A stretch of 64,000 bases of DNA from Glycomyces arizonensis DSM 44726 (GTDB lineage Bacteria > Actinomycetota > Actinomycetes > Mycobacteriales > Micromonosporaceae): contig NZ_AXWO01000020.1 of NCBI RefSeq assembly GCF_000482705.1, forward strand, positions 1-64,000, read 5' to 3'. This document shows positions 2,340-64,000 of this stretch, one piece after another. The notes beneath the pieces were generated by a model that saw nothing but the letters and a program-made list of their open reading frames with translations, was not told where the DNA came from and made no database searches. Position 1 is the stretch's first letter. Each line of letters starts with the position of its first letter. Position numbers and translations under genes: made by a program.

Positions 2340-2360
2340 CGCGCCTCCGATCCTATTTTC

Positions 2361-3023: not shown

Positions 3024-3336
3024 CAACGTTAGGCTACTCCAGCGTACGTCCGGGCGCAGGGAGCAAAAGCCCACTCTTTGCCCCGAACGGAGGCCGGATC
3101 CGCGCCCCGTGCGGGGACGGAGTTCGGGCCGCGGACAAGGCTACGACCTGCATGGCGAGCTCCGCTCGGCATGCGGCACGGACCTCCGGCGAACGGTCGC
3201 GCTCCAAGGCGAGGTCCGGCGGGTCCCGCCGCACGCCCGGCTTTCGGACGGGACTTCGGGGTCCCGCCCGGTGTGCGGTGCGCACCGGCCCCGCTCCGGC
3301 ACGAGGGTTCGGCGTGGACGGCGATGCCCACTCCCG
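3024..3336. other. intergenic region with TetR-gene promoter
   Basis: At its left edge lies the likely -10 box of the TetR gene (TAGCCT on the minus strand, 3031-3036). The remainder is GC-rich. A short CCCCG-TG-CGGGG hairpin near 3103-3115 is the only structure I see, and it could end transcription of the upstream channel gene's neighbours. No credible gene was found. Confidence 0.4.
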
Positions 3337-4506: not shown

Positions 4507-4712
4507 GGCTCTCAGGCTATCGGGAAAGGCGAGTGACCCGCGTGTCACGGGCCGTCGGCATGACGCCGGCCGCGCTCCGCAGAGCGGGAGCACGGCCGGT
4601 CGTCGAGCAGCGTTATTCGTCTATGTGTCGATTGGGCGGCGAAGGACGTTGCCGCGCAATGCGTTCACGCTCGCGCGGCGCGCCGCCCTCCGCGTTCACC
4701 GCCTCCTGGCGG

Positions 4713-5531: not shown

Positions 5532-5705
5532 GCCCGCAGACTAAGACAGAAATCAGCGCCATTCCGGCTATTGGCGCAATAGAGCCGCATCGGGCCGGTG
5601 AAACACGCGCGCGAAAAATGACAAGGATGTAAGCATCGCCCTGAGCGCGTCCCGGCCGGGCGGGGACGGCTGGCGCTCCATCCGCGCATGGGCCGGCGCA
5701 TGACT

Positions 5706-6182
5706 TCAAAGCGCGATGGCGCGCCTGCGCACCAGAAGGTTCTGCGCGCTCAGGCCGATGGCCACATAGGCGTACAGGGACGCGGTGCCCAAGAGCCCGA
5801 CGCCGTCCGCATGGTCGATCCACAGTCCCAGGCCGAGGTGGGCGATGAACGACAGCAGCCACAGGGCGGTCGTCACCAAGGTCCCCTTGCGCAGCACGCG
5901 GCCCTCGGGGCCGCGCCACACCGCGACCGTCCGCGAGCGGGCGGCGCCGAGCGCGGCCGCGACCACCAGGCTCACCGCCAGCAGCAGGACAGGAAGCGCG
6001 GTGAGCGGGTGGTACTTCACGACGGAGGCGACACCGAACGCGAGCCCTGCCGCACCCAGGACGCCGAAGACCGCCGGAGCGACGAGCGAGCCGACGGGCC
6101 GCACCGGTCGGGCGCGCAACTGCCGGAACACCACTACCGCCACGACCAGCGCCGCGACGGCGTAAGCACTCATATCAGACAT
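5706..6182 (-). CDS. small polytopic membrane protein
   Basis: The protein is about 158 aa from the ATG at 6182 (MSDMSAYAVAALVVAVVVF); a second ATG lies three codons later. Five hydrophobic segments are visible, near residues 6-20, 34-54, 58-80, 100-120 and 125-148, joined by short Arg-rich loops. It ends in a positively charged LLVRRRAIAL. I do not recognise a catalytic motif; the overall pattern resembles DUF1453/CcdC-type proteins, but this is a weak impression. It is separated from its neighbours by more than 100 bases on each side and is probably transcribed alone. Confidence 0.6.
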   Translation of the reverse strand: MSDMSAYAVAALVVAVVVFRQLRARPVRPVGSLVAPAVFGVLGAAGLAFGVASVVKYHPLTALPVLLLAVSLVVAAALGAARSRTVAVWRGPEGRVLRKGTLVTTALWLLSFIAHLGLGLWIDHADGVGLLGTASLYAYVAIGLSAQNLLVRRRAIAL

Positions 6183-6292
6183 GACGATCGCCGTTCCGGG
6201 AGAAGAGGTGCTCGGGGGCCTTCGCGATCCTAAGACTCCGAACCGGGCACCGCCATGCGCTGTGGCACCTCTCACCGCTGATGCGGCAGGGC

Positions 6293-6874
6293 CTAAGTGG
6301 GCCAGGTGCGCCATTTCTGCCACGATTTCGACGGCGTCGGGCCCCGCTGGCCCTGGTAGCGCGAGGCGGTGACCTCCGAGCCGTACGGGTGCTCGGCGGG
6401 CGAGGACAGCTGGAAGACGCACAGCTGCCCGATCTTCATCCCCGGCCACAGCGTGATCGGCAGGTTCGCCACGTTCGACAGCTCCAGCGTCACGTGCCCG
6501 GAGAAGCCGGGGTCGATGAACCCGGCCGTCGAGTGCGTCAGCAGCCCCAGCCGCCCCAGGCTCGACTTGCCCTCCAGTCGCGCGGCCAGGTCGTCGGGCA
6601 GGGTGACGATCTCCAGCGTCGAGGCGAGCACGAACTCACCGGGGTGGAGCACGAACGGCTGGTCGCCCGCGACGTCGACCGGCGCGGTCAACTCGTCCTG
6701 GCGCTCGGAGGGGTCGATGTGGGTGTACTTCTGGTTGTTGAACACCCGGAAGCGCCGGTCCAGCCGCACGTCGACGCTGGAGGGCTGGACGAGCTCGGGC
6801 TCGAACGGGTCGAGGCCGAGCCGCCCGTTCTTGACGGCGTCGGCGATGTCCCGGTCGCTCAAAAGCATGGCCAC
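6293..6874 (-). CDS. dcd: dCTP deaminase
   Basis: The 193-aa protein matches the length and sequence of trimeric dCTP deaminases. It begins MLLSDRDI, carries the nucleotide-binding motif [10 protein letters not shown] at 101-110, then [11 protein letters not shown] and [10 protein letters not shown] with the catalytic Glu at residue 131. It converts dCTP to dUTP, or in many actinobacteria directly to dUMP, feeding thymidylate synthesis. The start could be the ATG at 6874 or the one two codons later. It stands alone on the minus strand. Confidence 0.93.
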
Positions 6875-6923
6875 AGGCTACCCGTCCCTCTCGATGCGGA
6901 CTTTGGCACCTGACCGAGACGGA

Positions 6924-9050
6924 CTAGCGCGTCCCGGGTGGGATCGCGTAGGCCACGGTCCCGAGTTCACGCAGCTCCCATCCATCGGGAGCGATGACGG
7001 CGCACTCCTTGAGGTCCTCGGCGCACACGATCGCGTCGACGTCCGCGACGTCGGCGGGCGGCTGCCCCGGCACGATCGACTGGAGCGCCACCAGCTCGGT
7101 GCCCTCGGGCAGCAGCACCCACCACGGGTACTCCCACGAGTCGTTGCCCTGCACGATCCCGACGGTCTCGGCGCCCGAATCGGCGACGGCCGCGGCGGCC
7201 TCCTCGTACTGCGGGAGCCAGTCGCGTCGGCGCACGAACCGCTCCTCGTGGTCGCTCAGCGTGAACGCGGACCACGTGCCGGTCAGGCGCCGCGGATAGC
7301 CGTACGCGACGGTCAGCAGCCCCGCCAAGGACGCGATGACGGCGAGGGTGCCGAGCAGCCCCCAGGCGACGGCCCTGCGCCGCCGCTCGACCAATCGGCG
7401 CGCCAGTGCCGCCACGAACACCCCGCCGATGGGCGCGCCGAGGACGACCAGGAAGAGCACGAGCCGGTTGATCCACGGCTGCCAGGCGACCGTGGCGCAC
7501 AGCAGCACGAACGCGGCGGCCACCGCCGCGACATAGGCGCGGCGCACGCCCGGCCCCCGCCGCAGGAACCAGACCGCGCCGAAGAGCGCGGCGAGGCCGG
7601 TGAGCGGGAACGCGGCCCGGTCCTCGTCGGGGTACCAGGCCGCGACGGGGAAGGTCGTGGTGCCGAAGGTGACGTCGCGGTCGTTGACGTCGACGCCGAC
7701 GAGACCGGCGAAGCCCTCGATCCCGGCGGCGAACGCGTCGGAGAGCGGGGCGATCGGCGTATCGAGCCCGGTGTGGGCGATGCGCAGGCCGTTGACGGCG
7801 ATGAGGCGCGGGTCAGCGGTCTGGACGCCGACGGACTCGCGCAGCATCGCCGGGCCGAGCGGCGAGCCGAACTCGGCGTGCATCCGCGCCAGGAAGGGCC
7901 CGACCAGGACCAGCCCGATCGCGAGGACGGCGAGGGAGGCGCCGACGGTGCGCGCCCGCGCCGCCAGCGGGCGGGAGCGGGCGGTGCGCGAGCAGTGCTC
8001 GGGGTCGTGCCCGCACATGCACGGGTGGGAGCGGCGCCCGTCGCGGACGAGGCGGCCGATGCCCCACAGCAGCAGGAGCGGGGCGGCGGCGAGCAGGCCG
8101 GTGGTCTTGGTGACCGCGACGAGACCGAGCGCGAGGCCGAGGAAGAGCGCATCGGCGCCCGGCGTGGGGACGGCCCACCGCGCGGTCCCGCGCCGCTCGC
8201 CCGGACGCGTGAATTCGTCGAGGACGACGGTGGCGAGGCAGGCGACCCAGGCGGCGGCCACGAGGTCGACCTGAGTACTGGAGGCCTGGAGGAGCACCTC
8301 GGGGGTGGTGGCGAGGATGAACACGGTGGCGAGCTGGGCCACGGGGGCGCCGCCGAGCTGGGCGGCGATGCGCGAGGCGGCCAGGGCGGCGCCTACCGCC
8401 GCAAGGAGCTGCACGAGGTTATAGGCTCCGTCGCCGCCGGTGAGCAGCCGCAGGTGCGTCAGCAGGTACTCCGCGCCGGGGCTGATGTCGACCTGGCGGT
8501 GGATGTCGGTGGCGTAGGCCTCGACCGAACCGTTCTGGACCCAGTGCTCGATGCGCGGCAGGTGGTAGGTCTGGGAGTCGAAGTTATTGGGGGCCGAGGC
8601 GACGGCGAGGACGGCGGCGCTGACGAAGAGGATCGCGATGACGCAGGCCAGCGCCCACTGCCAGGCAGGGGCGGCGGCCGCGGCGGACCTGGTGCGCCGC
8701 CAGGTGCGGCGGGTGGCGCCGCGCTTGCGCCTGATCCCGTCGCGGATCACCGATACGGCGCTGCCGGGACGGGCGGGAGCGACGTCCCGGGCGCACCGGA
8801 CGACGACCGCGGCGGCGACGGCGAGCGTGGCGGTGACCCAGGAGGCCGCCACGACGACCGCGGTGAGGGCGTGCACCGCGGAGGCGGCTTCGACGGTGGC
8901 GATCGCCCACGCGCCCAAGAGCAGCGCGGCGCGCACGACCGCGAGGCGCATCGGCGCGACGGCGGCGCCTTCGAAGGGGCGGAGCGCATAGGCGAGGGCG
9001 ATCAGGAGGACGAGGAGCCACAGCATGAGCAGCACGGCTCCATTGAACAC
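6924..9050 (-). CDS. large polytopic membrane protein, GT-C glycosyltransferase-like
   Basis: Read from the GTG at 9050 (VFNGAVLLMLWLLVLLIALAYAL) the protein has 708 aa; the open frame further upstream overlaps the divergent glycosyltransferase and is not protein-like. At least ten membrane helices are seen. After about 180 residues comes the luminal-type loop FDSQTYHLPRIEHWVQNGS, whose Asp and following aromatic-His pattern resembles the first acidic motif of GT-C (PMT/ArnT-like) enzymes that use polyprenyl-phosphate sugars. The soluble C-terminus (about 100 residues) ends YAIPPGTR. It is divergent from a GT2 glycosyltransferase, which supports a joint role in sugar transfer at the membrane. 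The exact reaction is unknown. Confidence 0.6.
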   Translation of the reverse strand: MFNGAVLLMLWLLVLLIALAYALRPFEGAAVAPMRLAVVRAALLLGAWAIATVEAASAVHALTAVVVAASWVTATLAVAAAVVVRCARDVAPARPGSAVSVIRDGIRRKRGATRRTWRRTRSAAAAAPAWQWALACVIAILFVSAAVLAVASAPNNFDSQTYHLPRIEHWVQNGSVEAYATDIHRQVDISPGAEYLLTHLRLLTGGDGAYNLVQLLAAVGAALAASRIAAQLGGAPVAQLATVFILATTPEVLLQASSTQVDLVAAAWVACLATVVLDEFTRPGERRGTARWAVPTPGADALFLGLALGLVAVTKTTGLLAAAPLLLLWGIGRLVRDGRRSHPCMCGHDPEHCSRTARSRPLAARARTVGASLAVLAIGLVLVGPFLARMHAEFGSPLGPAMLRESVGVQTADPRLIAVNGLRIAHTGLDTPIAPLSDAFAAGIEGFAGLVGVDVNDRDVTFGTTTFPVAAWYPDEDRAAFPLTGLAALFGAVWFLRRGPGVRRAYVAAVAAAFVLLCATVAWQPWINRLVLFLVVLGAPIGGVFVAALARRLVERRRRAVAWGLLGTLAVIASLAGLLTVAYGYPRRLTGTWSAFTLSDHEERFVRRRDWLPQYEEAAAAVADSGAETVGIVQGNDSWEYPWWVLLPEGTELVALQSIVPGQPPADVADVDAIVCAEDLKECAVIAPDGWELRELGTVAYAIPPGTR

Positions 9051-52931: not shown

Positions 52932-53014
52932 GCGCGAGTGGCGGAATGGCAGACGCGCTGGCTTCAGGTGCCAGTGTCCGCAAGGACGTGTGGGTTCAAC
53001 TCCCACCTCGCGCA
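52932..53014 (+). tRNA. tRNA-Leu(CAG)
   Basis: The cloverleaf is complete. Acceptor strands GCGCGAG (52932-52938) and CTCGCGC (53007-53013) pair, with discriminator A53014. The anticodon stem CTGGC/GCCAG encloses the loop TTCAGGT, giving anticodon CAG for CUG codons, the main leucine codon in this DNA. A long variable arm (class II tRNA) and the T-loop GGTTCAACTCC are present. CCA is not encoded. A hairpin follows at once, and the antisense strand carries the open end of a serine integrase. Confidence 0.97.
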
Positions 53015-53016
53015 CG

Positions 53017-53039
53017 CAGGGTTCGCTATTTGAACCCTG
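53017..53039 (+). terminator. hairpin directly after tRNA-Leu
   Basis: CAGGGTTC (53017-53024) pairs perfectly with GAACCCTG (53032-53039) across a 7-base loop. It would end tRNA transcription. A further small palindrome GAAAAC-C-GTTTTC lies at 53048-53060 and might mark the attachment site. Confidence 0.6.
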
Positions 53040-54671
53040 AGATTTGTGAAAACCGTTTTCAGTGGCGGCGTCGTTCTCCGGAACGGCGCCGCTGCTGGCT
53101 TTCCGGGGCCTGGCCAGCTTCAGCAGCGGTTCGACGACGGAGCCGTGCTCGCTCCGTTCGATGCGCGGACCGTGGTCGCCGCGGTCGAGATAGAGCCCGC
53201 CGAAGCAGATCTGGTTGAGGACCTTCCGGTCCGCGTCGGCCACGCGCCGGTAGACCGCCTTCGGGTCGGCGAGGAACTCCAGGAGCGTCTCGATCGTCTC
53301 GCGGGCCTGCATCAGTTCGGTGGCGTCGGATCGGTCGAGTTGTTCGTCGATGGCGGCCTTCTTGAGTCGCAGGTCGCGGATCTTGGCGGTGAGTTTGTCG
53401 GCGGGCCAGTCCGGGTGTCCGACCAGTTCCACGTACTGGTCTTCCTGTGCTTCGAGGCGGCCTCGCTCGCGTGTCAGCTGGTCGCGCATGGCCTTGGAGG
53501 TGCGTTCCTCGGCTTCGAGCACGGCGGCCAGATGGGACCGGACCTCATCAGCCTCGGTCGAAGTGAGGGCGATGGTCGCCCAGTGGACCGCGACGTGGTC
53601 TTCGACGGCGGTCACCGGGAGCCTAGGCAGGTCGCATTCGCCGTGGGCGCGACCCAGGCACAGGTAGTAGAAGTAGAACCGCCCGGTCTTAGACTTGCCG
53701 CGCTCGATGGTCAGGCGCTGCTTGCAGCGAGCGCAGCGGACCAGACCTTTGAGGAAGTGGTCCCATTTGCGCTCGCGCACCCCCGCCTGGCGCTGCTGGT
53801 AGAGCACCTCTTGGACCCGTTTCAACAGCTCGGCGGTCACCAGCGGCTCGTGCCGCCCGTCGTACTCGCGTCCTTTGTAGGGAACCTTGCCGAGGTAGTA
53901 GCGGTCCCGCAGGATCCGGCCCAAGGTGTGCATCGAGACGGGTGTCCCGGCCGGATAACGCTTGGTCGGTCGGGTGCGCAGCCCGGCGGTGGTGGCGGCC
54001 TCGCGGAGCTGCGCGAAGGTGTATTGCCCCGTCGCGTACCGCTCGAACAGCATCCGCACCAGCGGCGCTCGCTCCGGATCGGGCACGACGGTGCGCCCGG
54101 ACCGTCCTTCGACGGTCTCGACCGAGTTGAGGTAGCCCAGTCTGGTGCGGTTCGGCGTCCCGCCGCGTTGGGCCTTGGCCTCCATCTTGTAGGCGATGTC
54201 GTCTCCGGCGGCCTTTGACTGGTACTCGTTGACCACGTCGAGGATGCCGGCGAGCATCTCCCCGGAGATGGTCTCGGCGGTCGGGTCCTTGACCGACAGG
54301 AGCGACACCCCCAGCCCTTTCAACTCCCGACGGGTCAGCGCGGCGTCGGCGGCGTTGCGGAAGATCCGGCTGCGCATGTAGATGAGGATGACGTTGACGT
54401 CGCCGCGGGTGCGGACGCGTTCCATCATCGCGCCGAAGGCCGGTCGGCGGTCGATGGTCTTGGCCTAGCGGCCCGGCTCGACGTACTCGTCGACCACCGT
54501 CAGCCCCAGATCGGCCGCCAGGGCAGCGCAGGCCTTGCGCTGGGCGGGGATCGAGTTGTCCTCGGGGTCGTAGTCGGTGTTGACCTGTTTGGGGTCGGAG
54601 ACCCGCAGATACAGCACCGCCCTCCCCGCGTGCCGAGCGCCGCTGCTCTCCTTGCTGTTCGGTCCTCTCAT
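53040..54671 (-). pseudogene. large serine recombinase (phage/ICE integrase) with in-frame amber codon
   Basis: From the ATG at 54671 the product begins [28 protein letters not shown], the resolvase domain with the catalytic Ser in YLRVSD, and runs to DEYVEPGR. Then a TAG (54465-54467) interrupts it. The same frame continues at once with AKTIDRRPAFGAMMERVRTRGDVNVILIYMRSRIFRNAAD, the rest of the resolvase domain. The recombinase domain (AGDDIAYKMEAKAQRGGTPNRTRLGY), the Cys4 zinc ribbon (VRCARCKQRLTIERG...FYYLCLG) and a coiled coil follow. Relatives have a Ser here, so a TCG to TAG change is likely. The frame stays open past the end given, antisense through tRNA-Leu to 51783, so the natural C-terminus is not defined. 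Confidence 0.85.
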
Positions 54672-54850
54672 CGCTGTCCCTCCGTACCTGGTTCACTGTC
54701 GCGGTCGATCACGCCCTGCGGCTCGCGCCCGTGGTCTTCGGGTTCGCGGTCGCGGATGGCGATGCGCACCAGCGCTTCGGCCAGGCGGCGGGTGTCGATG
54801 CGCCGCCTCCGTTCCCCGGTGACCCGGATCGAGTGGTCCCGGCCAGTCAT
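54668..54850 (-). CDS. small protein coupled to the serine integrase
   Basis: The 60-aa product ([32 protein letters not shown]...) ends with TGA overlapping the integrase ATG as ATGA. An upstream GTG at 54859 is an alternative start. Its basic, helical character and position before the integrase match small accessory genes often found beside actinobacterial serine integrases; a role in recombination direction is only a guess. Confidence 0.55.
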
Positions 54851-55152
54851 CGCGACCACCGGCCCGTACGGGCGCGGCCGAGCACGTGGCGTGTGACGGT
54901 AGCTCCGCTCCGGCGCGCCATCAAGCCATGCGAAGTGGGCCGCGAGCGCGGCGGTTGAGCAGCTGCGGCAGCCTCAGAAGAGGAACCCAGGGCAGGCAGC
55001 GCAGCGTCGGGTGATGAGCAGACGTAGGGCAAGGTGGGCGTCCCACCGAGCATCGAGCGATCCAGGCGGCCATAAATTTTACTCGCAATATCACCGTTAG
55101 TCAATACCCAGATACATTTTTTCGCTCAGCTCGACTGGGTGAACGCACCCTC

Positions 55153-55201
55153 CCGGTTGCCCGCACCCACCCTCAGCGCAGTAACCAGGGTGGGTAACCG
55201 G
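55153..55201. other. nested inverted repeat
   Basis: CCGGTT (55153-55158) pairs with AACCGG (55196-55201), and inside it ACCCACCCT (55165-55173) pairs with AGGGTGGGT (55187-55195). A 6-base internal loop lies on one side only. Confidence 0.55.
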
Positions 55202-55546
55202 CTGGAGATCAGGAGTTATATCACTGTTCATGCCTGTTCGTGAGGGTAACCTGGGTCCAGAGCAGCTGCGTGTCCGCAGGCTGGGCCCACCCTTGCCTCA
55301 GTAGCCGACTACCCGGTGTGCTTTCCGAATGAAGGCGATCTCGTCTCCTGATTTCGACGGCTATAACCGACTTCCTTCTTCCGCCGTGCGGCGCGTCTGC
55401 TCTGCGGGGCCCGCGCTGGCCATCCAGGAGGTCGGCTCGTTGACCGTCTCCTTTCCCGCCCCGCTCCACAGCTCGTCAACGGCCGTGTACGGCCGCCCAC
55501 CGCCGCACGGGCCCATGAAACCGCTAACGAGGCCACCAGGGTTAGG

Positions 55547-55589
55547 AGTCGGCCACGACAAGCCCGCACCAGGGCTGTCGTGGCCGACT
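55547..55589. other. 18-base-pair stem with one bulge
   Basis: AGTCGGCCACGACA plus GCCC on the left (55547-55565, one extra A) pairs with GGGC plus TGTCGTGGCCGACT on the right (55572-55589). The loop is GCACCA. There is no T-run. Confidence 0.6.
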
Positions 55590-55632
55590 GCCGCGCCTGC
55601 GGAAAATATCGCCTCGCGGGGAAAGAAGAAGA

Positions 55633-55660
55633 GACCTCTATGCACGAATACATAGAGGTC
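55633..55660. other. 10-base-pair perfect stem
   Basis: GACCTCTATG (55633-55642) pairs with CATAGAGGTC (55651-55660) around an 8-base loop CACGAATA. It contains an ATG preceded by a purine-rich AAAGAAGAAGAG, so it might mask a start codon if the short frame is real. Confidence 0.55.
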
Positions 55661-55809
55661 GGACTGGTGAGTGGCCGGCCATTCCGGTCCCTTCCCGCGG
55701 ATACACCGACCACCTTGGGTGCCAGAGGACTCGGGGCCAGCAGCGGGCTGCGACTCGGGATCAGCATCGGAAGCAGCATCAGCGCGGAGCCGGGGTCACC
55801 CTCCGCCGG

Positions 55810-56727
55810 CTAACGGCGACTTCTGGGAATGAACGGCAACTGGGCGAGCGTCAGGAAGTGCCCCAGTGGCTTGCCGACGAGCTGCCAGATCGCATCGAGC
55901 GGATCAGCACTGCGACCGGTCGTGACCATGGCGATGGTGAACTTGAACCCGCTCTGGGCGAGCGCGGCATGCAGGTTGGCTTCGCGCCCGGGTTTGGTCA
56001 GCTCGAGCAGCAGCGCCTGCCTCCAGTCGACGCGACCGATCACCTTGTTCCAACTGGTTGCCCCGTTGTACCAACTGGCCTTCTGCACCAATGCGGCAAG
56101 GGTCTCGGTGCCGGTGTCGTGCTCGAACCAGAAGACCCGCTCCTCATCGGAGACGTCAACAAGAGCACCGCCGTCGGGACGCAGGACTGAGGCGTCCATG
56201 AGCTCGGTGGCCTCAGCCTCCCCATACCAGCGGAGCAACTCGATCTCAGGGTGAGCCTTGACGGAGGCGGCGAGACGGGAATAGAAGTCGTTGACCGCCT
56301 CCAAGTGGGTGCGCCTCGGGTTGGCGATCAAGCGGGCGATCAGCGCCTCGGCAGCCGGACGACTCGGCTGCGGCCGGGGCTTGGCCCCGCCACCTCGGAG
56401 ATATTCGGGCAGGGCAAGGCGGACCTCTTCAACGGCGGCGTGATGGAGCCGAAGCCCGTTCCACGCCAGCACGTATCGATAAGCGGACCGATTCGAAGGC
56501 CGAAACCGGTCGACCACCCCCAGCTCATACAGGGTGGTAAGCCGGTCACGAGCCGAGGACAGCGACGTGAAATGCACCCGAGCGATCTGCTCCAGCGTCA
56601 GCACCCGCAGATGCCCCAGATCCCCGATGATCGCCCGGTCCCGATCGGTCAGCCGGTAAGCCAGCTCGGGCAAACTGACCGCCTTCGCAGCCGGTGTCCG
56701 CCACGAACCCAATCGGCACACCCCCAT
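55810..56727 (-). CDS. replication-relaxation family protein
   Basis: About 305 aa from the ATG at 56727; the start is uncertain because no clear ribosome site is seen and the frame opens earlier with TTG at 56751. The N-terminal winged helix (LAYRLTDRDRAIIGDLGHLRVLTLEQIARVHFTSLSSARDRLTTLYELGVVDRF) is the hallmark of the replication-relaxation family common on actinobacterial plasmids and integrative elements. The C-terminal domain (FWFEHDTGTETLAALVQKASWYNG) has a nuclease-like Asp-Glu pattern shared by the family. Its presence supports a mobile-element origin of this region. Confidence 0.8.
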   Translation of the reverse strand: MGVCRLGSWRTPAAKAVSLPELAYRLTDRDRAIIGDLGHLRVLTLEQIARVHFTSLSSARDRLTTLYELGVVDRFRPSNRSAYRYVLAWNGLRLHHAAVEEVRLALPEYLRGGGAKPRPQPSRPAAEALIARLIANPRRTHLEAVNDFYSRLAASVKAHPEIELLRWYGEAEATELMDASVLRPDGGALVDVSDEERVFWFEHDTGTETLAALVQKASWYNGATSWNKVIGRVDWRQALLLELTKPGREANLHAALAQSGFKFTIAMVTTGRSADPLDAIWQLVGKPLGHFLTLAQLPFIPRSRR

Positions 56728-57002
56728 CCCATTGCGAGGAGACTCGGGCAAGCATTATCGCCCCGTATCGTTCGGTTCATGGCTGATTCAGCGGCATTCA
56801 ATACAGAAACCCACTGGTCACGCTCGCTTTCAGGGGTGCCTCCGATGTGGGCACCGGAGCCGTGCCTTCGAGCCGCGAGAGCGTGAAGTAGCCCATCTGG
56901 CTTCCGCGTTTGTCGGATTCAAGACAGTTACTGAAGGTATCCGATGATGCGCAGGCTGCTCTTTCTCGAACGAGTCCTCTTGGCTGAGAAGGAGAATGAT
57001 AA

Positions 57003-59555
57003 GTGTCGATACCCGAGCACCTCGGCCAGTTCCACTCCGAAAACCCGCGTGAGGAGATGGAACAGGGACACCAGACCGCACCCGAGCCGCCAGCGGCACA
57101 GCAATCGACGGTCACGCAGGAGGCCAGCCAGGAGGTTCCCGCACCGCCTCCGGCTGACAAAACCGGAATGGAAGCGCCCGTTGACGGGTCCGATCCAGTG
57201 GGCGAGTCCGCGCTGTCGCCGAACGGCGGGCCTGCGTCCCCCGGTCCGACTCCAATCGCCACAACCGAGGCTTCCGAAGCGATTCCTCCGTCCGTCGGCC
57301 AAGGTGACGTGGAACCGCTAGAGAAGGCCGGGTACGAAGGCACTCCTCAAACGGTCTACAACTCGTCGTTCCATGACGTCGACAAGGTGGTCATGGCTGC
57401 TTATATCGGTAAGCTGCATGTCGACCATCGTGGTGAACTTCTTCGCGTCACCGAGATTTCGGTCGACGACCTCGCGGAAGAGGCCAGAGAGCGGTTCACG
57501 CTCCCGAAGGGCATCGATGCCATCGAGGAAGACCTGTTCGTGGGCGAACGCCGGGTCGCGCTGCTCACGATCGAGGAAGGCGGCCGAGACCTCACCGCTC
57601 GCTATCTGGTGAGCGCCGACTCGGAGCGGAAACCTCGGCGGATCCATCCTCCGGTGAACCTGACGATCGAGCCTTGGCAGCTCAACGAGTATCCGAAAAG
57701 CGCCTTCCTGCTCGATCTGGCGGATGTCGAGATCGAGAAACCCAAACATGTGCTCCAGAACCTGCTCGGGCTGCAAGGGGCGCTCGCCGAGCAGGGATCG
57801 TTCCTGATCGTCCTGGTCGGCGACGACCACCTGGATGAAACACAGCGGGAAGAACTCGGCGTCAGCGAACTGAAGCGGCCGGACCCCTATGCCGTTCTGT
57901 ACAGCCGCTTGGACGCCGCCATCACTACTGCGGGAACCGGCGGTGACGCTCGGCTCACGGATTCGGAGACCGCGAAGCACGATGACGGCGCGGGCACCGG
58001 TTCCGACGCCGCCTTTGCCGGTTCGCCCGACCTGTGGGCTGCGTTTGCGCGGGCCCGGCGGCTGCTCCACGGGAAACCGCCGGCCGAAGCGCTGCGGTTG
58101 TGCAAGGCGATCGTAGAGGCGACTGAGCACTGGAACAGTCTGGCTCCCACCGAGCAGGAGTCGCTGAAGGAGCAGTTCAACGAACGTTACCGCTTCGTTC
58201 AAGTCAACGAGGTGCGCCTGTACGTCGAGCAACTCGCGCTTGACCGCTTTCAGGCGTGGGAAACCGAGCTGGATGCGTGGAACAGGAAGTATCAGGATCA
58301 GCCGCGACTGCGGGCCTTCCAACTGGCGATCGCGGTCGTACCGTCGGGCGACCCGATCCAGATCCGCAGCCAAGCGACCGCACTGCTCCAGCGCATCGGC
58401 AGGCAACAGCTCGAAGCGGAAGGACTCGACGATGCCGGAGCCGGCACCCAGGCATCGCGTGAGCCTGCGCTCAGTGGTCTGGGAACACGGCTCCTCGCCC
58501 ACGAGTCCCTGGCAGAACTGCAGGACGGCAAAGTCGTCTTCACCAAACCCGGCTTCGACGAAGCGGTCGTCCGCTACTTCTGGAACGACTGGCCCGAATA
58601 CCGGGACGTCCTGCTCGACTGGCTGATGAAACTCGCCACCGACGACAACTTCAAACCCGAGGTCAGGGCCAAGTTGAAAGAGCGCATCGGCGATTTCGCC
58701 ATCCACCACGCCCAAGAACGCGGCGAGCTCAGCTTCCTTTACGACGTCGTCTCGAAATGGGCCGACGACCCGGGCACACTCGGTGACGCCGCGCGGCTGC
58801 TGGAAGAAGCCGCCACAAAGTCCGGCATCGCCGGATCGGTGCGAAAGCGCACCCGCGAATGGACGACGCAGCAATCCCAGAATCTCAAACGCGCCGTCGC
58901 CGAACTGTGTGCGAGGGCCACCTTCACCCGCGAGTTCCCCGGGCTGGTCGCCACCAGACTCGCACACCTCTTGGAGAGTCAAGAAGACGGCGAAAAAGAT
59001 CCTGTCTTGGACTCCGCCCTCCAGCGGGCGAGCCAACTCCTGGTCACAGCGGCCGATCAGAGTCACTTCGTCTTGACCAAGCTCAGCACCGATGCGAAGG
59101 CGGAGGCGCCTGAAAAGCGGAAACGCGCGGCAGGGCTGTTCCTCCCGATCGCACAGGCGCGGATGGAAGGGGCAGCGGCTCCGGCGCTGATCGCCCAGGC
59201 AAAGGAAACCACACCTGGTCGAGGCGCGCTGGTCACTGTCTGGGGTACCGCGCTCCGGCTTCTCGACGAACCAGCGATCCAACCCGCCTTCAACGCCTGG
59301 ATGGACGCCTGCACCGTGCCTGAGACCGCATCGCAGGTGATCCGCGTATTCGGCGACGCCATCGCCACTGAATGGGACGGATCCGGAGCGGCCAATCACG
59401 CCTTGGCTCGGCTCTCCGGTGTATGGAAGGCGACCACCGACCTGCCGCCTGAGCATGCGAACGACCTCGACCGGCGTCTGTTGACCGCCGCTCGCGACGC
59501 GATGACCGAAGTCGAACACCGGGCCTTCAACGATCGTGGTCAGGGGCGCGAATGA
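57003..59555 (+). CDS. large protein of unknown function, STAND-like NTPase region with degenerate P-loop
   Basis: The GTG at 57003 has AGGAG eight bases upstream; the protein has 850 aa. Residues 1-110 are Pro/Gln/Glu-rich and disordered. From about 115 a domain begins YNSSFHDVDKVVMAAYIGKLHV. Its stretch RFTLPKGIDAIEEDLFVGERRVALLTI looks like the lead-in and P-loop of STAND-type NTPases, but the GxxxxGK[ST] is lost (FVGERRVALL at 179). Walker-B-like AFLLDLADVE lies at 234 and a sensor-like strand FLIVLVGDD at 267. Residues 350-850 are almost wholly helical. The next gene overlaps by ATGA. It may belong to a conflict or signalling system with an inactive NTPase scaffold; this is inference. 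Confidence 0.6.
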   Translation: MSIPEHLGQFHSENPREEMEQGHQTAPEPPAAQQSTVTQEASQEVPAPPPADKTGMEAPVDGSDPVGESALSPNGGPASPGPTPIATTEASEAIPPSVGQGDVEPLEKAGYEGTPQTVYNSSFHDVDKVVMAAYIGKLHVDHRGELLRVTEISVDDLAEEARERFTLPKGIDAIEEDLFVGERRVALLTIEEGGRDLTARYLVSADSERKPRRIHPPVNLTIEPWQLNEYPKSAFLLDLADVEIEKPKHVLQNLLGLQGALAEQGSFLIVLVGDDHLDETQREELGVSELKRPDPYAVLYSRLDAAITTAGTGGDARLTDSETAKHDDGAGTGSDAAFAGSPDLWAAFARARRLLHGKPPAEALRLCKAIVEATEHWNSLAPTEQESLKEQFNERYRFVQVNEVRLYVEQLALDRFQAWETELDAWNRKYQDQPRLRAFQLAIAVVPSGDPIQIRSQATALLQRIGRQQLEAEGLDDAGAGTQASREPALSGLGTRLLAHESLAELQDGKVVFTKPGFDEAVVRYFWNDWPEYRDVLLDWLMKLATDDNFKPEVRAKLKERIGDFAIHHAQERGELSFLYDVVSKWADDPGTLGDAARLLEEAATKSGIAGSVRKRTREWTTQQSQNLKRAVAELCARATFTREFPGLVATRLAHLLESQEDGEKDPVLDSALQRASQLLVTAADQSHFVLTKLSTDAKAEAPEKRKRAAGLFLPIAQARMEGAAAPALIAQAKETTPGRGALVTVWGTALRLLDEPAIQPAFNAWMDACTVPETASQVIRVFGDAIATEWDGSGAANHALARLSGVWKATTDLPPEHANDLDRRLLTAARDAMTEVEHRAFNDRGQGRE

Positions 59556-60319
59556 ACAAGCGCCGCAATGATGCACGGCGCGAATCCTGGAAGGAGGATG
59601 TCGAGTTCCACGTACCATGCGCGGAACCCGGCATCACCTTCAAGGTTGTTCTCCACCTGGAGGGAACACGCCCGCGACGAATGCCCGCGCCTCGGGCGAT
59701 CGCGATCGCCCGAGGCGCAGCGGTGGAAGCGATCGCCGAAACCGCGAAACGTTACTCAGTAGCCGCTGACAAGGCCGCCACCGACGCGGCCGAGGCCGCG
59801 TGCCTCAATCTCAAACGCTCCAGGCGCAAACCGCACATCGACACGGTACGTGTCCGATTGCACGGCGACCGGGATGCAAAGGTCGAACTACGGCACCTGC
59901 AGACCCTCAAACGCGTCGCCGAGGTCGCCGGAGCCGAGGCTGTGACAGAGGCGGCCAGGGCCGTGGCCATACGGCACACCGTGCTGGACGACCATGGCAC
60001 CACCGTCGCACGACTGCTCCTCGAACCTCCAGCGAAAACTGAGTTCGGCAGCCTGCCGAAGACCGCGGCCGATCTCCGCACCGGCATCGACGACTACCGC
60101 CCCGATGAGCGCTGGATCCGCGTCGCCGAGACGTTGAAGGCGTTCGCCGACAAACGGGCCACAGAGGAGGTCAAGCAGGTCTTGCGGGATCTGTCCGTCT
60201 GGATCGCCTCGCACAGCCCCGAACTGTCCGAGCGAATCGATGAAGCGAGACGCGAGGCGCCTCTCGACGGCGACGTCCCCCGCCAGGATCCGGATCTTCA
60301 ATCCGCTGAGAACGGATGA
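59552..60319 (+). CDS. unknown partner protein of the 850-aa gene, possible SPFH-like domain
   Basis: This 255-aa protein starts at ATG 59552 overlapping the previous stop. After a charged start (NKRRNDARRESWKEDVEFHV) it has strand-rich PGITFKVVLHLEGTRPRR, an Ala-rich helix (ARGAAVEAIAETAKRYSVAADKAATDAAEAACLNL), another strand (IDTVRVRLHG) and a helical part ending in strands TTVARLLLEPP. The order of strands and Ala-rich helices resembles bacterial SPFH/band-7-type proteins, but weakly. The C-terminal third is charged and helical. Tight coupling suggests a complex with the large protein. Confidence 0.5.
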   Translation: MNKRRNDARRESWKEDVEFHVPCAEPGITFKVVLHLEGTRPRRMPAPRAIAIARGAAVEAIAETAKRYSVAADKAATDAAEAACLNLKRSRRKPHIDTVRVRLHGDRDAKVELRHLQTLKRVAEVAGAEAVTEAARAVAIRHTVLDDHGTTVARLLLEPPAKTEFGSLPKTAADLRTGIDDYRPDERWIRVAETLKAFADKRATEEVKQVLRDLSVWIASHSPELSERIDEARREAPLDGDVPRQDPDLQSAENG

Positions 60320-60425
60320 AGACGGCAACGATCGATCCTACACGGAGACAACGGCTGTCCAACGAATTTGTCCCATCGAAGGCTTCGGACCGCTTGCCTG
60401 GCAACCAAAACTCCTGGACAGTGGC

Positions 60426-60455
60426 TTGTAATCGACTTATCACGGAACCTACAAT
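60426..60455 (+). promoter_or_regulatory. promoter of the HTH/DUF397 operon
   Basis: TTGTAA (60426-60431) and TACAAT (60450-60455) are 18 bases apart. The ATG at 60464 lies eight bases after the -10 box, so the transcript is probably leaderless. Confidence 0.6.
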
Positions 60456-60463
60456 CCATGGAC

Positions 60464-61312
60464 ATGACCGACATAGAGGACCCGACGCTGGCGCCGCCCC
60501 CGCTGCTGGAATTGGGACGGCAGTTGGAAGCCGAGCGGATCCGGCCGCGCTCCAGGCTTCCCAGGGGCTACACCAAGACCGATATCCCGAGTGACATCTG
60601 TTCGACGAAGACGCTGGGCCGCTTGGAATCCGGACGGTATCGGGGCGTGAACCTCGGGACCGTGCTCAAGCTGCTGCGGTTCTACCAGACCCCGTACGAC
60701 CATGCCGACCACATCGCGCGCCTGGCCGAGGCGTCCAAGGCCCGCGACTGGTGCGCCGTCTACGGCAACGTCGTCGAGGATCGCGGCTGGTTCCTCCAGC
60801 AATGCGAGGACAGCGCCAGCTTCCTCTGCTACCACGCTTCACTCGCGATCCCTTCGCTGATCCACAGCAAGGCGTACTACAAGATGATCGAGCACACCAC
60901 TCAGGTGTCCTTCGCCGGTGACTTCTCTTGGGAAGAGAGCTGGCGATTCCGCCAGGAGCGGCGCCAGCGCTGGATCGACTCTGAGCGCCCTGCGGTCTTT
61001 CTGATTGGTGAGGGCGCGCTGAGGATGGATCTTGGTCCTGAACGAGACGCGATCCTGGACGACCTCCGGGAAGTCGCGGCGCTGCCGTTCGCCGACGTGC
61101 GCATCATCCCGTTCTCGGCGGGCCGCTACGACCTCCAGCCGTGGTCACTGAACCTGTTCGAGTACGACGGCGACGAGCAGCCGGTGATCAACGTCGAATC
61201 CCCACGGGGGCAGGGATTCATAGCCGCCGATACACAGCGGGGTAAGGTTTTCAGAGACGCCTTCAAACTGGCGTCGGCCGAGTCGATCCCCGCGGAGGAC
61301 TTCCTGACATGA
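60464..61312 (+). CDS. XRE-like regulator with DUF5753 domain
   Basis: The ATG at 60464 gives 282 aa; ATG 60458 is only two bases after the -10 box and less likely. The N-terminal 85 residues form a divergent helix-turn-helix (LLELGRQLEAERIR...ICSTKTLGRLESGRYRGVNLGTVLKLLRFY). The rest is DUF5753: ASKARDWCAVYGNVVEDRGWFLQQCEDSASFLCYHASLAIPSLIHSKAYYKMI through RIIPFSAGRYDLQPWSLNLFEY. This class is abundant in filamentous actinobacteria and nearly always paired with DUF397 proteins; such pairs influence development or antibiotic production. It overlaps the next gene by ATGA. Confidence 0.85.
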   Translation: MTDIEDPTLAPPPLLELGRQLEAERIRPRSRLPRGYTKTDIPSDICSTKTLGRLESGRYRGVNLGTVLKLLRFYQTPYDHADHIARLAEASKARDWCAVYGNVVEDRGWFLQQCEDSASFLCYHASLAIPSLIHSKAYYKMIEHTTQVSFAGDFSWEESWRFRQERRQRWIDSERPAVFLIGEGALRMDLGPERDAILDDLREVAALPFADVRIIPFSAGRYDLQPWSLNLFEYDGDEQPVINVESPRGQGFIAADTQRGKVFRDAFKLASAESIPAEDFLT

Positions 61313-61509
61313 AGAAGATCGGTCCCTGGCGCAAGTCGAGCCGCAGCGGAGGCGGCAACCAGGACAACAGCTGCGTCGAGGTTCGCCTGCACGGCGAGGT
61401 CCCGCAGGTGTCGGACTCGAAACTCGCCGATGACCGTCCGATTCTTACCGTCACCCCCGCCACCTACAACGGCCTACTGGCCTGGGTGAAGGACCACGGC
61501 GAAGCCTGA
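61309..61509 (+). CDS. DUF397 protein, first copy
   Basis: The 66-aa product has the DUF397 hallmark WRKSSRSGGGNQDNSCVEVRLHG followed by VSDSKLADDRPILTVTPATYNGLLAWVK. DUF397 proteins partner with the upstream HTH/DUF5753 regulators and probably modulate their DNA binding. Overlaps on both sides mean it is translated with its neighbours. Confidence 0.88.
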   Translation: MKKIGPWRKSSRSGGGNQDNSCVEVRLHGEVPQVSDSKLADDRPILTVTPATYNGLLAWVKDHGEA

Positions 61510-61790
61510 TGGCCGGCCCGGTCAGGCACCACCCGCTCAAGGGCCGGTTCGACTCCGCAGCCGCCCAGTGGGTCCGCCCCGACGGTGACGACGGCAGACC
61601 TGGCGAACTGGAGATCGGCTTCGCTGAGAACGGCCTGGTCGCCATGCGCCGTGTCGACGACCCTGACGGCACCGCCCTGATCTACACGCCCGAGGAGTGG
61701 ACGGCCTTCGTCGAAGGCGTCAAGGACGGCGAACTCGATTTCGCGATCCTCATGGAAGACGCCAGGCGGGCGAGCCTGCCCAGCGAATAG
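61509..61790 (+). CDS. DUF397-like protein, second copy
   Basis: The 93-aa product starts at an ATG that shares its A with the previous TGA. The segment ELEIGFAENGLVAMRRVDDPDGTALIYTPEEWTAFVEGVKDGELDF matches the second half of DUF397, while the first 30 residues differ from the usual WRKSS start. The pair in tandem may have diverged functions. The operon ends at a clear intrinsic terminator. Confidence 0.8.
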   Translation: MAGPVRHHPLKGRFDSAAAQWVRPDGDDGRPGELEIGFAENGLVAMRRVDDPDGTALIYTPEEWTAFVEGVKDGELDFAILMEDARRASLPSE

Positions 61791-61802
61791 GTTCAAGCAT
61801 CC

Positions 61803-61838
61803 AGACGCGCCGACGGGACACCGTGGCGCGTCTTTTTG
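61803..61838 (+). terminator. intrinsic terminator of the HTH/DUF397 operon
   Basis: AGACGCGCC (61803-61811) pairs with GGCGCGTCT (61825-61833) across 13 bases and runs into TTTTT. This is the clearest classical terminator in the window. Confidence 0.88.
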
Positions 61839-61946
61839 TCCAATCCTGAGGAACGGGCTTCCCGACAAGCCAGCACGGTCCGGATGAGCGCGCCCGTCAG
61901 AATTGATCATTGCCTGAACGTTTCACCAGTTCATAGGCTTGTATTC

Positions 61947-62264
61947 ATGAGCAAGCAGGGAAATGCGACCCCCAGCGGCCTCGCATTGCAACGAGGACGG
62001 TTCAGCGACGGTGGCGGGTCCTTCACGGTCCGCGCCTCCAGCGACCAGGCTCCGGACTCGTTCCAGGTGTACACGAACACGAACCCGGCCGACATCGTCC
62101 TCATCGTCTCGGGCCTGAACTCCGGGAACCTCCGGGCGACCTGGGGCGACGACTGGCGTTCACTCAGCGAGGAGTGGAAGGGCTGGTTCAAGAACCAGGC
62201 GTTCCTGGTCTTCTACAACGGCCCGGCACCCGCTCTCGGGAAGGTCCGGTTCTGCGATGGCTGA
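61947..62264 (+). CDS. small hypothetical protein
   Basis: The ATG at 61947 follows a TAGGCT box by seven bases (leaderless). The 105-aa product (GRFSDGGGSFTVRASSDQAPDSFQVYTNTNPADIVLIVSGLNSGNLRATWGDDW) is strand-rich with a Trp-rich C-terminus (SEEWKGWFKNQAFLVFYNG). I do not recognise it. It overlaps the next gene by eight bases. Confidence 0.5.
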   Translation: MSKQGNATPSGLALQRGRFSDGGGSFTVRASSDQAPDSFQVYTNTNPADIVLIVSGLNSGNLRATWGDDWRSLSEEWKGWFKNQAFLVFYNGPAPALGKVRFCDG

Positions 62265-62487
62265 CCAGTTCCTCGGCGAGTTCAAGCGCAGCCCGGCCAC
62301 CTTCTTCGTCCACCAAACCGCGCCGGGGGCCTACCGAATCGACTTCCGCGACAACGGCGGCGGTCCCAGCGAAGTCTGCGCCTTCACCACCGAGGCCGCC
62401 CCGCGATGGCGCGGCGCGTGGAACGGCGACCAGTGGTGCGCCTGGATCGAGGCCGAGGCCCGCAGCATCATCGGCCGCACCGGGTGA
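62257..62487 (+). CDS. small hypothetical protein
   Basis: The 76-aa product (ADQFLGEFKRSPATFFVHQTAPGAYRIDFRDNGGG...WRGAWNGDQWCAWIEAEARSIIGRTG) has good codon bias and overlaps its upstream neighbour, so the two probably act together. Family not recognised. Confidence 0.5.
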   Translation: MADQFLGEFKRSPATFFVHQTAPGAYRIDFRDNGGGPSEVCAFTTEAAPRWRGAWNGDQWCAWIEAEARSIIGRTG

Positions 62488-62697
62488 GAAGCCGCTCCTC
62501 GGCCAGGCGACTGAACCACGGAGCTGAGCCGGGAGCATTCGATGGGGTCGGCCGGCCGGTGGGGACCAGCCGGCCCCGCTTCAGAACCCCAGCGCAGCCT
62601 CCGTGAACGCGTCCACAGCATCGACCGGGTCGGCGTCGTAAGCACCGAACGACCTGGGCCTGCATATCGATACCGGTTCGACGCGTCTCAGCACGAC

Positions 62698-63150
62698 TCA
62701 AGATGGATTCTCCGGGACACGGGGTGCGGCCAGAAGACTGAAGAGGAAGAGGGCGAGTCCGAAGTTCGTCAAGCCGAAGGTCCATCCCCAGAAGGTCTGC
62801 ATCGCCGTGCTGATCGGGGCGGTGCTGATCGCAGGGCCGAGTTGACACACGACCAGTATTTGGAACACCGCGCCTGTGACCAGCGCAGCGGTTTTTCTGA
62901 ACCACACCCCGACGGCCACGACCAGGGCGATGATGGCGAGAACCGTGCCGCCACCATAGATCGTTTCCGGTATGCCGTCGAACTTCCCGCACTCAGGCGC
63001 GCTGTCGGGGCCGCACTCGCTCACGCTGCCCGCCAGCCAGCGCTGGTTGAGGACCAGGAACAACAACCACTCGGCAGCCATCACCCCAGCGGTGATCCGA
63101 TAGGACCACTTCGACGGGATCACGGACATCGGCGACTTCGGCATACTCAT
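62698..63150 (-). CDS. small four-helix membrane protein
   Basis: The 150-aa protein starts at ATG 63150, overlapping the upstream stop as ATGA. Four hydrophobic segments are visible (AGVMAAEWLLFLVL, GGGTVLAIIALVVAVGVWF, AALVTGAVFQILVVC, FGLALFLFSLLAA), with an extracellular-type loop holding two Cys (SECGPDSAPECGKF). No known function. Confidence 0.6.
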   Translation of the reverse strand: MSMPKSPMSVIPSKWSYRITAGVMAAEWLLFLVLNQRWLAGSVSECGPDSAPECGKFDGIPETIYGGGTVLAIIALVVAVGVWFRKTAALVTGAVFQILVVCQLGPAISTAPISTAMQTFWGWTFGLTNFGLALFLFSLLAAPRVPENPS

Positions 63151-63812
63151 GCACCGGGGAACAGGACGAGCAACCAGATGAGCATCAAAGCCGCTCCAAC
63201 CGCAACAACGACACCGACCGCGACCGCAAGATCAATCGCGTTGGCACGCAGCAGACCTCCGCCTCTCCGCGGCGGAGTGTCAAAGTACCTGTCCAGCCGC
63301 AACGCCTTCTGTGTCCCCGCGATCACCAGCCACAGCAGCAGTGCCACGAAGATGAGAAGGAACCAGCCCCCTGCGGCAGTGAGGGCCAATGCGACCAGGG
63401 CCCCCGCGACGACTTGCAGCCAAGCGAGGATCCCGACCAGATTCAGATACATCCCGGCCCGCCGCGGCCGCCGAATGAGGTTCACCGCAGCCAGCGCGTT
63501 CAGCAGCGGAGTCGGACCTACCAGCACTGCGAAGACCACAGTCCCAGCAGTGACATCGGCGCCGGCGATGGCACTCAACGCCAGGAACAGCAGCCACAGA
63601 GGGAACCCGAGCACCATCACCGCAATGGCGTGCACGACCAGCATGGCCCGCAGCGGGCCTACGCCCTCGGGGATCGGAGTCTCCAGCCTGGCGAAAGGTA
63701 TCGGGTTCGCACCCCTTTTCGAGGATTCGGGTCGCGGGTCAGTAACGTTCAGTTCACCATCCGAACCGGCTCTGTCCGCCGACTCGGACACAGGTTCGAG
63801 CGGTTCAGTCAT
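63147..63812 (-). CDS. membrane protein, partner of the next gene
   Basis: The 221-aa protein is read from ATG 63812 (TEPLEPVSESADRAGSDGELN), which has no ribosome site of its own but lies inside the end of a tiny upstream frame. A 50-residue soluble N-terminus precedes about five membrane helices (MLVVHAIAVMVLGFPLWLLFLAL, VVFAVLVGPTPLLNALAAV, VGILAWLQVVAGALVALAL, FLLIFVALLLWLVIAG, VAVGVVVAVGAALMLIWLLVL). It is coupled to the next membrane protein. Function unknown. Confidence 0.6.
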   Translation of the reverse strand: MTEPLEPVSESADRAGSDGELNVTDPRPESSKRGANPIPFARLETPIPEGVGPLRAMLVVHAIAVMVLGFPLWLLFLALSAIAGADVTAGTVVFAVLVGPTPLLNALAAVNLIRRPRRAGMYLNLVGILAWLQVVAGALVALALTAAGGWFLLIFVALLLWLVIAGTQKALRLDRYFDTPPRRGGGLLRANAIDLAVAVGVVVAVGAALMLIWLLVLFPGA

Positions 63813-63855
63813 CGTCGTTCGCTTTCCGAAAATCCGGCCCGTTCCGCCGAGGCAT
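63805..63855 (-). CDS. 16-codon leader-type frame with strong ribosome site
   Basis: MPRRNGPDFRKANDDD is preceded by a near-ideal AAGGAGGA (minus strand, 63858-63867), and its TGA overlaps the following ATG at 63812 by eight bases. The downstream gene lacks its own site, so this short frame probably drives its translation by coupling. Whether the peptide itself has a role is unknown. Confidence 0.45.
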   Translation of the reverse strand: MPRRNGPDFRKANDDD

Positions 63856-64000
63856 GTGGTCCTCCTTCGCAGAAGGTTCGATCGGGATCGTTTCCCTGCC
63901 TTCAAGGGCTGTCGAGCCGAACCGGTAGCCCCAGCCCGATGAGGGCCTGCACCAATGAATCACGCTCGGCAAGCACAGGAATACGACCACAACCAGGTTG

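What the first reader, a model, noticed from the sequence alone, without database searches (positions are those of the whole stretch)
57003..60319. Uncharacterised two-gene system in the accessory region
An 850-aa protein (disordered head, STAND-like NTPase region with the P-loop lost, long helical body) is translationally coupled to a 255-aa possible SPFH-like protein. It lies between mobile-element genes and an HTH/DUF397 operon. Tight coupling, unusual architecture and location in a mobile region are typical of defence or signalling systems that have not been described. It is the best candidate for a new system here.
Basis: inference. Interest (0 to 1): 0.75.

Follow-up and report, generated by a model that had tools for sequence, protein, structure and literature searches.

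The report
Mobile STAND-like/SPFH gene pair, probably defence
Two coupled bacterial genes, a sensor-like protein with a degenerate ATP-binding loop and a membrane-scaffold-type (SPFH) partner, sit in a mobile island that carries restriction enzymes in two sister species, and they belong to an apparently undescribed actinobacterial family whose fuller versions add a signalling enzyme.

Summary
A (57003-59555, 850 aa) and B (59552-60319, 255 aa) overlap by ATGA, are intact and constrained, and match no Pfam or PADLOC family. Models give A a STAND/AAA+-like core without a canonical Walker A, plus a HEAT-like solenoid; B has an SPFH domain. The pair lies in a ~19-kb island inserted after tRNA-Leu. 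That site is empty in 17 of 21 congeners; two others carry recombinase islands there with a type I or type IIG restriction system as cargo. A/B is therefore probably defence cargo. A (with B in most) is the core of a wider actinobacterial family: of 37 loci compared, 22 have a class III-type cyclase gene upstream (Crp gene too in 20), 9 a TIR gene, 3 a small protein C, 3 none of these (window included). In the 31 enzyme loci the enzyme's C-terminal tail resembles its own A's N-terminal head far more than other A heads (0 of 10,000 permutations reach it), as in amyloid-motif NLR pairs. The window lineage has no enzyme gene and no detectable matched motif. Best reading: stripped branch of an undescribed STAND-SPFH conflict system. 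Defence is inferred from context, not shown; nine Glycomyces cyclase-type copies sit in an ordinary chromosomal neighbourhood.

The parts
52932..53015 (+). tRNA-Leu (CAG), left edge of the island; site empty in 17 of 21 congeners
   Evidence: ARAGORN; congeners
53016..64000 (.). Island inserted after tRNA-Leu; runs past the window to about 72,100 of the contig (about 19 kb)
   Evidence: In 17 of 21 congeners the tRNA end is followed within 195 bp by the counterpart of contig position 72,091-72,229
53060..54671 (-). Large serine recombinase, read in two frames in the window (looks broken)
   Evidence: Resolvase, Recombinase, Zn_ribbon_recom; frames; edges approximate
55810..56751 (-). Replic_Relax protein (conjugative-element type)
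   Evidence: PF13814 5.9e-30
56988..56993 (+). AAGGAG, likely ribosome-binding site of A
   Evidence: read
57003..59555 (+). Gene A, 850 aa, STAND/AAA+-like core without canonical Walker A plus HEAT-like solenoid
57003..57431 (+). Head of A (residues 1-143), apparently disordered; the counterpart region in enzyme-bearing relatives carries the motif matched to the enzyme tail
   Evidence: no matched partner found for the window head
57444..57938 (+). P-loop-fold domain of A (residues 148-312)
   Evidence: model residues 46-210
57567..57599 (+). Degenerate Walker A (TIEEGGRDLTA, residues 189-199)
   Evidence: alignments
57699..57722 (+). Walker B-like strand (FLLDLAD, residues 233-240; D238 nearly invariant)
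58254..59534 (+). HEAT/ARM-like helical solenoid of A (residues 418-844)
59552..60319 (+). Gene B, 255 aa, SPFH domain plus helical C-terminal half; no transmembrane helix
59579..59869 (+). SPFH domain of B (residues 10-106)
60458..61790 (+). HTH_31/DUF5753 gene and two following small genes (second scanned one DUF397); neighbours, not shown to belong to the system

Best explanation
A/B is a two-gene branch of an actinobacterial conflict (immunity-type) system. A is a STAND-like hub: a P-loop-fold domain that has lost the canonical Walker A, so it probably does not work as an ordinary ATPase switch, joined to a HEAT-like solenoid that would bind the trigger. B is an SPFH protein that would build a ring or cage with A; in many relatives a transmembrane helix ties it to the membrane. 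In fuller relatives A, once triggered, would recruit or switch on an enzyme (cyclase feeding a Crp regulator, or a TIR) by like-to-like contact between the enzyme's tail and A's head. In the window lineage enzyme and matched motif are absent, so output would have to come from A and B themselves or from a partner elsewhere. The pair travels as cargo of a tRNA-Leu island, most likely for defence against phages or other elements. Shown by sequence, model or comparison: genes, folds (predicted), family, gene swaps, tail-head match in relatives, island and its restriction cargo elsewhere. Inferred: trigger, assembly, activation, defence.
For: Island site empty in 17 of 21 congeners; G001 and G010 carry recombinase islands there with type I RM (HsdM 5.9e-131, HsdR E=0; an HsdS-like ORF between them by eye) and type IIG RM (E=0). 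In G001 the 86%-identical left arm stops at window 56,762, just before A, and similarity resumes at 60,883, just after B. Other A loci lie near PADLOC hits among the neighbours that I chose to scan: G010 CD-NTase 1.9e-141, capP 3.1e-17, JetA 2.2e-142, JetB 1.9e-145, JetC 1.1e-248; G076 DruE 5.4e-176; G148 DpdE 6.4e-194. Folds: SPFH; AAA+ plus solenoid, with Avs5 (SIR2-STAND) as best Foldseek hit (E 2.1e-4) and SAMD9 among long VIA matches. Upstream genes: cyclase 22, TIR 9, C 3, none 3 of 37 loci; TIR by Pfam in 6 of 6 scanned, 5 above cut-off; cyclase profile to 3mr7 8.8e-6. Tail-head match: 31 loci, own mean 67.5 against 34.6 (sd 2.0), 0 of 10,000; two controls flat. A C homologue in G391 lies just upstream of a NACHT protein.
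Against: No defence test. No PADLOC match for A, B, C or the cyclase. Nine Glycomyces cyclase-type operons lie in a recurring chromosomal neighbourhood, which suits housekeeping signalling. The window genome has no C and no second A, and C tails do not match A heads above shuffles, so the motif mechanism does not carry over. AAA+ is weak by sequence (best 0.027); TM-scores are low (0.17), and VIA Z near 8 for a helical model is not decisive. Defence neighbours were picked, not sampled.
Confidence: 0.55

Rival explanations
1. A/B serves the island itself: stability, entry exclusion or control of its transfer, not host defence.
For: In the window and in G. albidus the pair lies beside Replic_Relax, and in G. 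albidus beside a coupling-type ATPase; both are recombinase-bearing regions.
Against: Relatives G001 and G010 carry island genes at this site without A/B; A/B relatives L017 and L082 have no conjugation genes in the stretch seen.
Confidence: 0.15
2. A general signalling or stress module (cyclase-Crp-A-B) that has been picked up by islands; no immunity role.
For: Crp gene in 20 of 22 cyclase loci; recurring chromosomal neighbourhood in nine Glycomyces, one clade at 100/99 with a tenth copy; 10 of 22 Glycomyces genomes lack the family altogether, or nearly so, so it is not essential either way.
Against: TIR in place of the cyclase in 9 loci; patchy spread, 20 of 197 class genomes; placement with RM cargo and near CBASS, Wadjet, Druantia and Dpd-type genes.
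Confidence: 0.2
3. A decayed remnant: the effector is gone and A/B is on its way out.
For: No enzyme or C gene beside A in the window and in L002; recombinase of the window island looks broken.
Against: Both genes intact in two species at 53% and 56% aa identity, with changes concentrated at third codon positions; same two-gene content in both.
Confidence: 0.1

Closest known systems
Amyloid-motif NLR signalosomes with BASS motifs (Bell, CHAT or TIR effector plus NLR; PMC7889193 and PMC9815663, passages read)
   Same: Adjacent, overlapping genes; motif at the effector's C-terminus and the NLR-like protein's N-terminus, alike within a pair; filamentous actinobacteria; TIR among the effectors
   Different: A lacks a canonical P-loop; SPFH partner; cyclase+Crp as main upstream module; BASS identity and amyloid formation not tested; the window lineage shows no matched motif
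iSTAND and iSTAND2 ternary systems (Kaur et al. 2020, 2021; PMC7159879 and PMC8195603, passages read)
   Same: Eroded STAND NTPase; cyclase, TIR or peptidase signalling domains linked through shared N-terminal domains
   Different: Those are MoxR-vWA systems and iSTAND is said to be almost absent from actinobacteria; no MoxR gene was noticed beside A; B is SPFH
Pycsar (class III-type cyclase plus cyclic-nucleotide-gated effector)
   Same: Class III-type cyclase beside a cNMP-binding protein (Crp)
   Different: cNMP protein is a Crp regulator, not a TM/TIR effector; cyclase has no PADLOC hit at 0.01; extra A and B genes
Avs STAND proteins (EfAvs5)
   Same: Best Foldseek hit for A; STAND-type core plus helical repeats
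   Different: Avs5 has its SIR2 effector on the same chain; TM-score 0.17, no sequence family match
SPFH family (stomatin, prohibitin, HflK/C, vault shoulder)
   Same: Predicted fold of B residues 10-106
   Different: No sequence match; no transmembrane helix in the window B; partner is a STAND-like protein

Membership tests
SPFH domain proteins (B) | SPFH fold | tested here: met
   VIA: vault shoulder Z 10.1 over 95 aa, stomatin 9.7, prohibitin 9.3, HflK/C 9.1; first clearly unrelated rows at Z 7.8. Predicted model only
SPFH domain proteins (B) | Sequence recognised as Band_7/SPFH | tested here: not met
   No Pfam family for B or for five relatives scanned that carry it; profile A4 finds no SPFH chain in PDB sequences
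SPFH domain proteins (B) | Ring or cage assembly | not testable with these tools
   no complex prediction available
STAND NTPases (A) | P-loop/AAA+ core followed by helical parts and repeat sensor | tested here: inconclusive
   Model: AAA+ rows Z 8.1-8.8 over about 200-220 aa for residues 46-315, solenoid rows for 316-740; Avs5 421 aa Z 8.4; SAMD9 301 aa Z 8.2; all near the level the tool calls middling for helical models
STAND NTPases (A) | Walker A GxxxxGK[ST] | tested here: not met
   0 of 29
iSTAND ternary systems | MoxR and vWA genes as partners | tested here: not met
   none seen by eye beside A in the stretches; L086 has a vWA-like gene downstream but no MoxR was noticed; no profile search for MoxR was made
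BASS/NLR signalosomes | Same motif in effector C-terminus and NLR N-terminus of adjacent genes | tested here: met
   For the enzyme-bearing relatives: 31 loci, 0 of 10,000 permutations; own head best in 18 of 31
BASS/NLR signalosomes | The same in the window lineage | tested here: not met
   no enzyme gene; head search of own genome finds only itself; C tails no better than shuffles for own heads
BASS/NLR signalosomes | Motif forms amyloid; belongs to BASS1-10 | not tested
   -
Pycsar | Pyrimidine cyclase with a cyclic-nucleotide-gated effector | tested here: not met
   No cyclase gene at the window locus; the relatives' cyclase has no PycC hit at 0.01
Any defence system in PADLOC 2.0.0 | HMM match of A or B | tested here: not met
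   0 families at E<=1

The most novel reading that the evidence does not exclude
A/B is the invariant core of a so far undescribed family of actinobacterial immune signalosomes in which a STAND-like hub without a working ATP switch and an SPFH membrane scaffold are combined with interchangeable signal enzymes (cyclase with its own Crp receptor, TIR, or a small C protein) through pair-specific tail-head motifs, and whose stripped, soluble branch works as a two-gene defence carried by islands.
Probability: 0.3. Interest if true: 0.8.

Novelty: new variant of a known kind. Interest (0 to 1): 0.6.

Why it matters
If true, it ties SPFH membrane scaffolds, known so far mostly for membrane organisation and protease control, to STAND-type immune sensing in bacteria, and offers natural swaps (cyclase, TIR, C, none) around one core, so the question what the scaffold and a degenerate P-loop do in an immune complex can be tested by exchange. 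It also gives a defined tRNA-Leu island in Glycomyces that carries different defence cargo in different species.

Tried and rejected
Membership in a described family: rejected for lack of matches (Pfam, PADLOC, NCBIfam; TIGR00789 at 0.11 for B taken as chance). iSTAND ternary system: rejected on context. Pycsar: rejected. C tail matched to A head: tried, no match above shuffles for the three own pairs. A partner in the window genome by head similarity: none. Sequence proof of SPFH or AAA+: tried with profiles, none or weak. Phage records: no A; plasmid records: one distant Streptomyces match to window A, none at 1e-10 for the L078 A. An att repeat: no 18-base word of window 52932-53100 recurs in the contig, so the edges rest on the empty sites. 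GC3 (A and B 0.75 against a median of 0.947 for 31 genes) points to foreign origin, but the 31 genes were picked by a GC3-based caller, so it is weak.

Rows dropped: tree rows 33 of 37 A loci (L075, L079, L100, L102 not in the tree). Of the class-survey matches, those to G138, G149, G096, G191 and the second one in G189 were not fetched; likewise fragments in G012 and G010:C64.

No literature description found: searches in a library of open-licence papers; subscription papers and preprints not held.
Full report
Observation. Gene A (57003-59555, 850 aa) and gene B (59552-60319, 255 aa) overlap by ATGA, with a good ribosome-binding site before A. Neither matches Pfam or PADLOC at E<=1; NCBIfam gives only TIGR00789 at 0.11 for B. 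The codon-position pattern against the G. albidus pair shows constraint. The window genome (G000, 49 contigs) has A once.

Where it lies. The stretch left of and including tRNA-Leu is found in all 22 genomes of the genus. Of the 21 relatives, 17 continue from the tRNA end, within 195 bp, into the counterpart of contig position 72,091-72,229: the site is empty. One (G017) has about 1.5 kb there, one (G020) ends at a contig edge, and two (G001, G010) carry a recombinase island. The window island is thus about 19 kb (53,016 to about 72,100), with A/B inside. In G001 similarity to the window runs at 86% up to 56,762 and resumes at 60,883; between these its cargo is HsdM (L126:1893-3506), a 410-aa ORF that looks like HsdS by eye, and HsdR (5528-8638). 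In G010 a related island carries a 1619-aa type IIG restriction-methylation enzyme. Three occupied sites, two with restriction cargo, one with A/B. In the window the recombinase is read in two frames; an unbroken relative of 575 aa exists in G001.

What A is. A model of residues 103-850 from 29 sequences has mean pLDDT 81, pTM 0.73. Model residues 46-315 align to AAA+ proteins (Rpt subunits, p97, FtsH; Z 8.1-8.8, roughly 200-220 aa), 316-740 to HEAT/ARM solenoids (Z up to 10.6); EfAvs5 (SIR2-STAND) aligns over 421 and SAMD9 over 301 residues. Foldseek's best hit is EfAvs5 (E 2.1e-4, TM-score 0.17). By sequence the AAA+ link is weak. No member of 29 has a canonical Walker A; most read GxGR or GTGL there, while the Walker B-like Asp is kept in over 90% of rows.

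What B is. The model (13 sequences, mean pLDDT 69; about 94 for residues 10-80) matches SPFH domains over residues 10-106: vault shoulder 10.1, stomatin 9.7, prohibitin 9.3, HflK/C 9.1, erlin 8.9; the first clearly unrelated rows (a ribosomal protein, dihydroneopterin aldolase) score 7.8. The C-terminal half is helical and poorly predicted. Of 25 B proteins tested, 16 have a transmembrane-like stretch near the N-terminus and 9, the window's included, do not.

The family. A-family matches: 12 of 22 genomes of the genus, 20 of 197 sampled genomes of the class, 9 of 91 genera. I compared 37 loci: 22 have a cyclase-like gene just upstream of A, with a Crp-type gene in 20 (the other two lie at contig ends); 9 have a TIR gene; 3 (L017, L082, L099) a small protein C; 3 (window, L002, L077) none of these. 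The cyclase-like genes carry no Pfam hit, but their profile finds class III cyclases in the PDB (3mr7 8.8e-6; Ma1120 8.4e-5), with both metal Asp positions invariant in 19 of 19 (D23, D70; role by recall). TIR: PF13676 in 6 of 6 scanned, 5 above the cut-off. In the A tree (33 rows) window, L002, L017, L082 and L099 form one group (86/93); the window joins L002 (100/100), then L017 (100/99); all 7 TIR rows lie in a group of 9 with two cyclase rows (100/99); the ten Glycomyces cyclase rows form one group (100/99). A profile of tail-less B proteins finds 7 of 394 class genomes, four of them weakly. C is found in 5 of 394 class genomes (two weakly, in long ORFs) and 2 of 22 of the genus (one weakly), not in the window genome nor in G006. 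In G391 a C homologue lies just upstream of a NACHT protein (PF05729 8.4e-10) with an intact P-loop by eye.

Tail and head. In L022 the cyclase ends with GNVFSGDVTTGEGGTVNAFGGDQHNN and A begins with GNVFHGEVSTGEGGTVNAFGGDQHNN. Over 31 enzyme loci the mean local-alignment score of a tail with its own A head is 67.5, with permuted heads 34.6 (sd 2.0), reached in 0 of 10,000; within Glycomyces (10), other cyclase loci (12) and TIR loci (9) also 0 of 10,000 each. The own head is the best in 18 of 31; L019, L025, L026, L071 and L102 rank 10th or worse. Controls (enzyme N-terminal part against A head; enzyme tail against A residues 300-430) give no excess. This is the arrangement described for BASS motifs in NLR/effector pairs (PMC7889193, PMC9815663; passages). 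I did not test amyloid formation or BASS membership. The three C loci and the window show no such match.

Context elsewhere. Among neighbours that I chose to scan, A loci lie near a CD-NTase, a capP-like gene and JetA, JetB, JetC (L017), a DruE-type helicase (L077) and a DpdE-type helicase (L073); weak caspase and subtilase hits near L100 and L002; other scanned neighbours had none. This is not a sampled count. Against it, nine Glycomyces cyclase operons share a chromosomal neighbourhood with SurA-like and mazG-like genes (named by eye).

Mechanism. Most likely a sensor-hub (A) with an SPFH scaffold (B); fuller relatives add an enzyme recruited through the tail-head motif; the window branch has shed the enzyme and moves as island cargo. 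Folds, family, swaps and island are supported here; trigger, assembly, output and defence are inference. Rivals: island-maintenance function, general cNMP-type signalling, decay.

Novelty. Eight searches of an open-licence library gave no paper describing the combination; the nearest are Kaur et al. 2020 and 2021 (iSTAND) and the BASS papers. New variant of a known kind.

Noticed in passing
window 53060-54671: The island's serine recombinase is read in two frames and looks broken; a 575-aa unbroken relative exists in G001 (L126).
   Followed up: partly
L126 (G001) 1893-8638 and L131 (G010) 4083-8942: The same tRNA-Leu site in two other Glycomyces carries islands with type I and type IIG restriction cargo: a defence-cargo site.
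   Followed up: yes
L131 1-3893 against window contig 67,706-71,493: In G010 this part of the island is in the opposite orientation relative to the recombinase.
   Followed up: no
window 61836-62487 and L027 11437-12040: Two small genes of unknown function occur both beside the window pair and beside the G. albidus cyclase-type operon, with DUF397 genes near both.
   Followed up: no
L002 17210-21303: Another possible NLR-type set near the G. albidus pair: a P-loop/TPR STAND-like protein, a subtilase-like protein and a 117-aa protein that resembles Bell-type effectors by eye.
   Followed up: partly
L110 7039-10199 (G391): C homologue just upstream of a NACHT protein: C may be an effector or adaptor shared by several STAND systems.
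   Followed up: partly
L086, L089: The gene after A is a longer protein, SPFH-like by eye, which the window B profile does not reach.
   Followed up: no
L077, L100: In two genomes of one genus the A locus borders a DruE-like 1.56-kaa helicase (the L077 copy was scanned; the L100 copy named by its similar sequence).
   Followed up: partly
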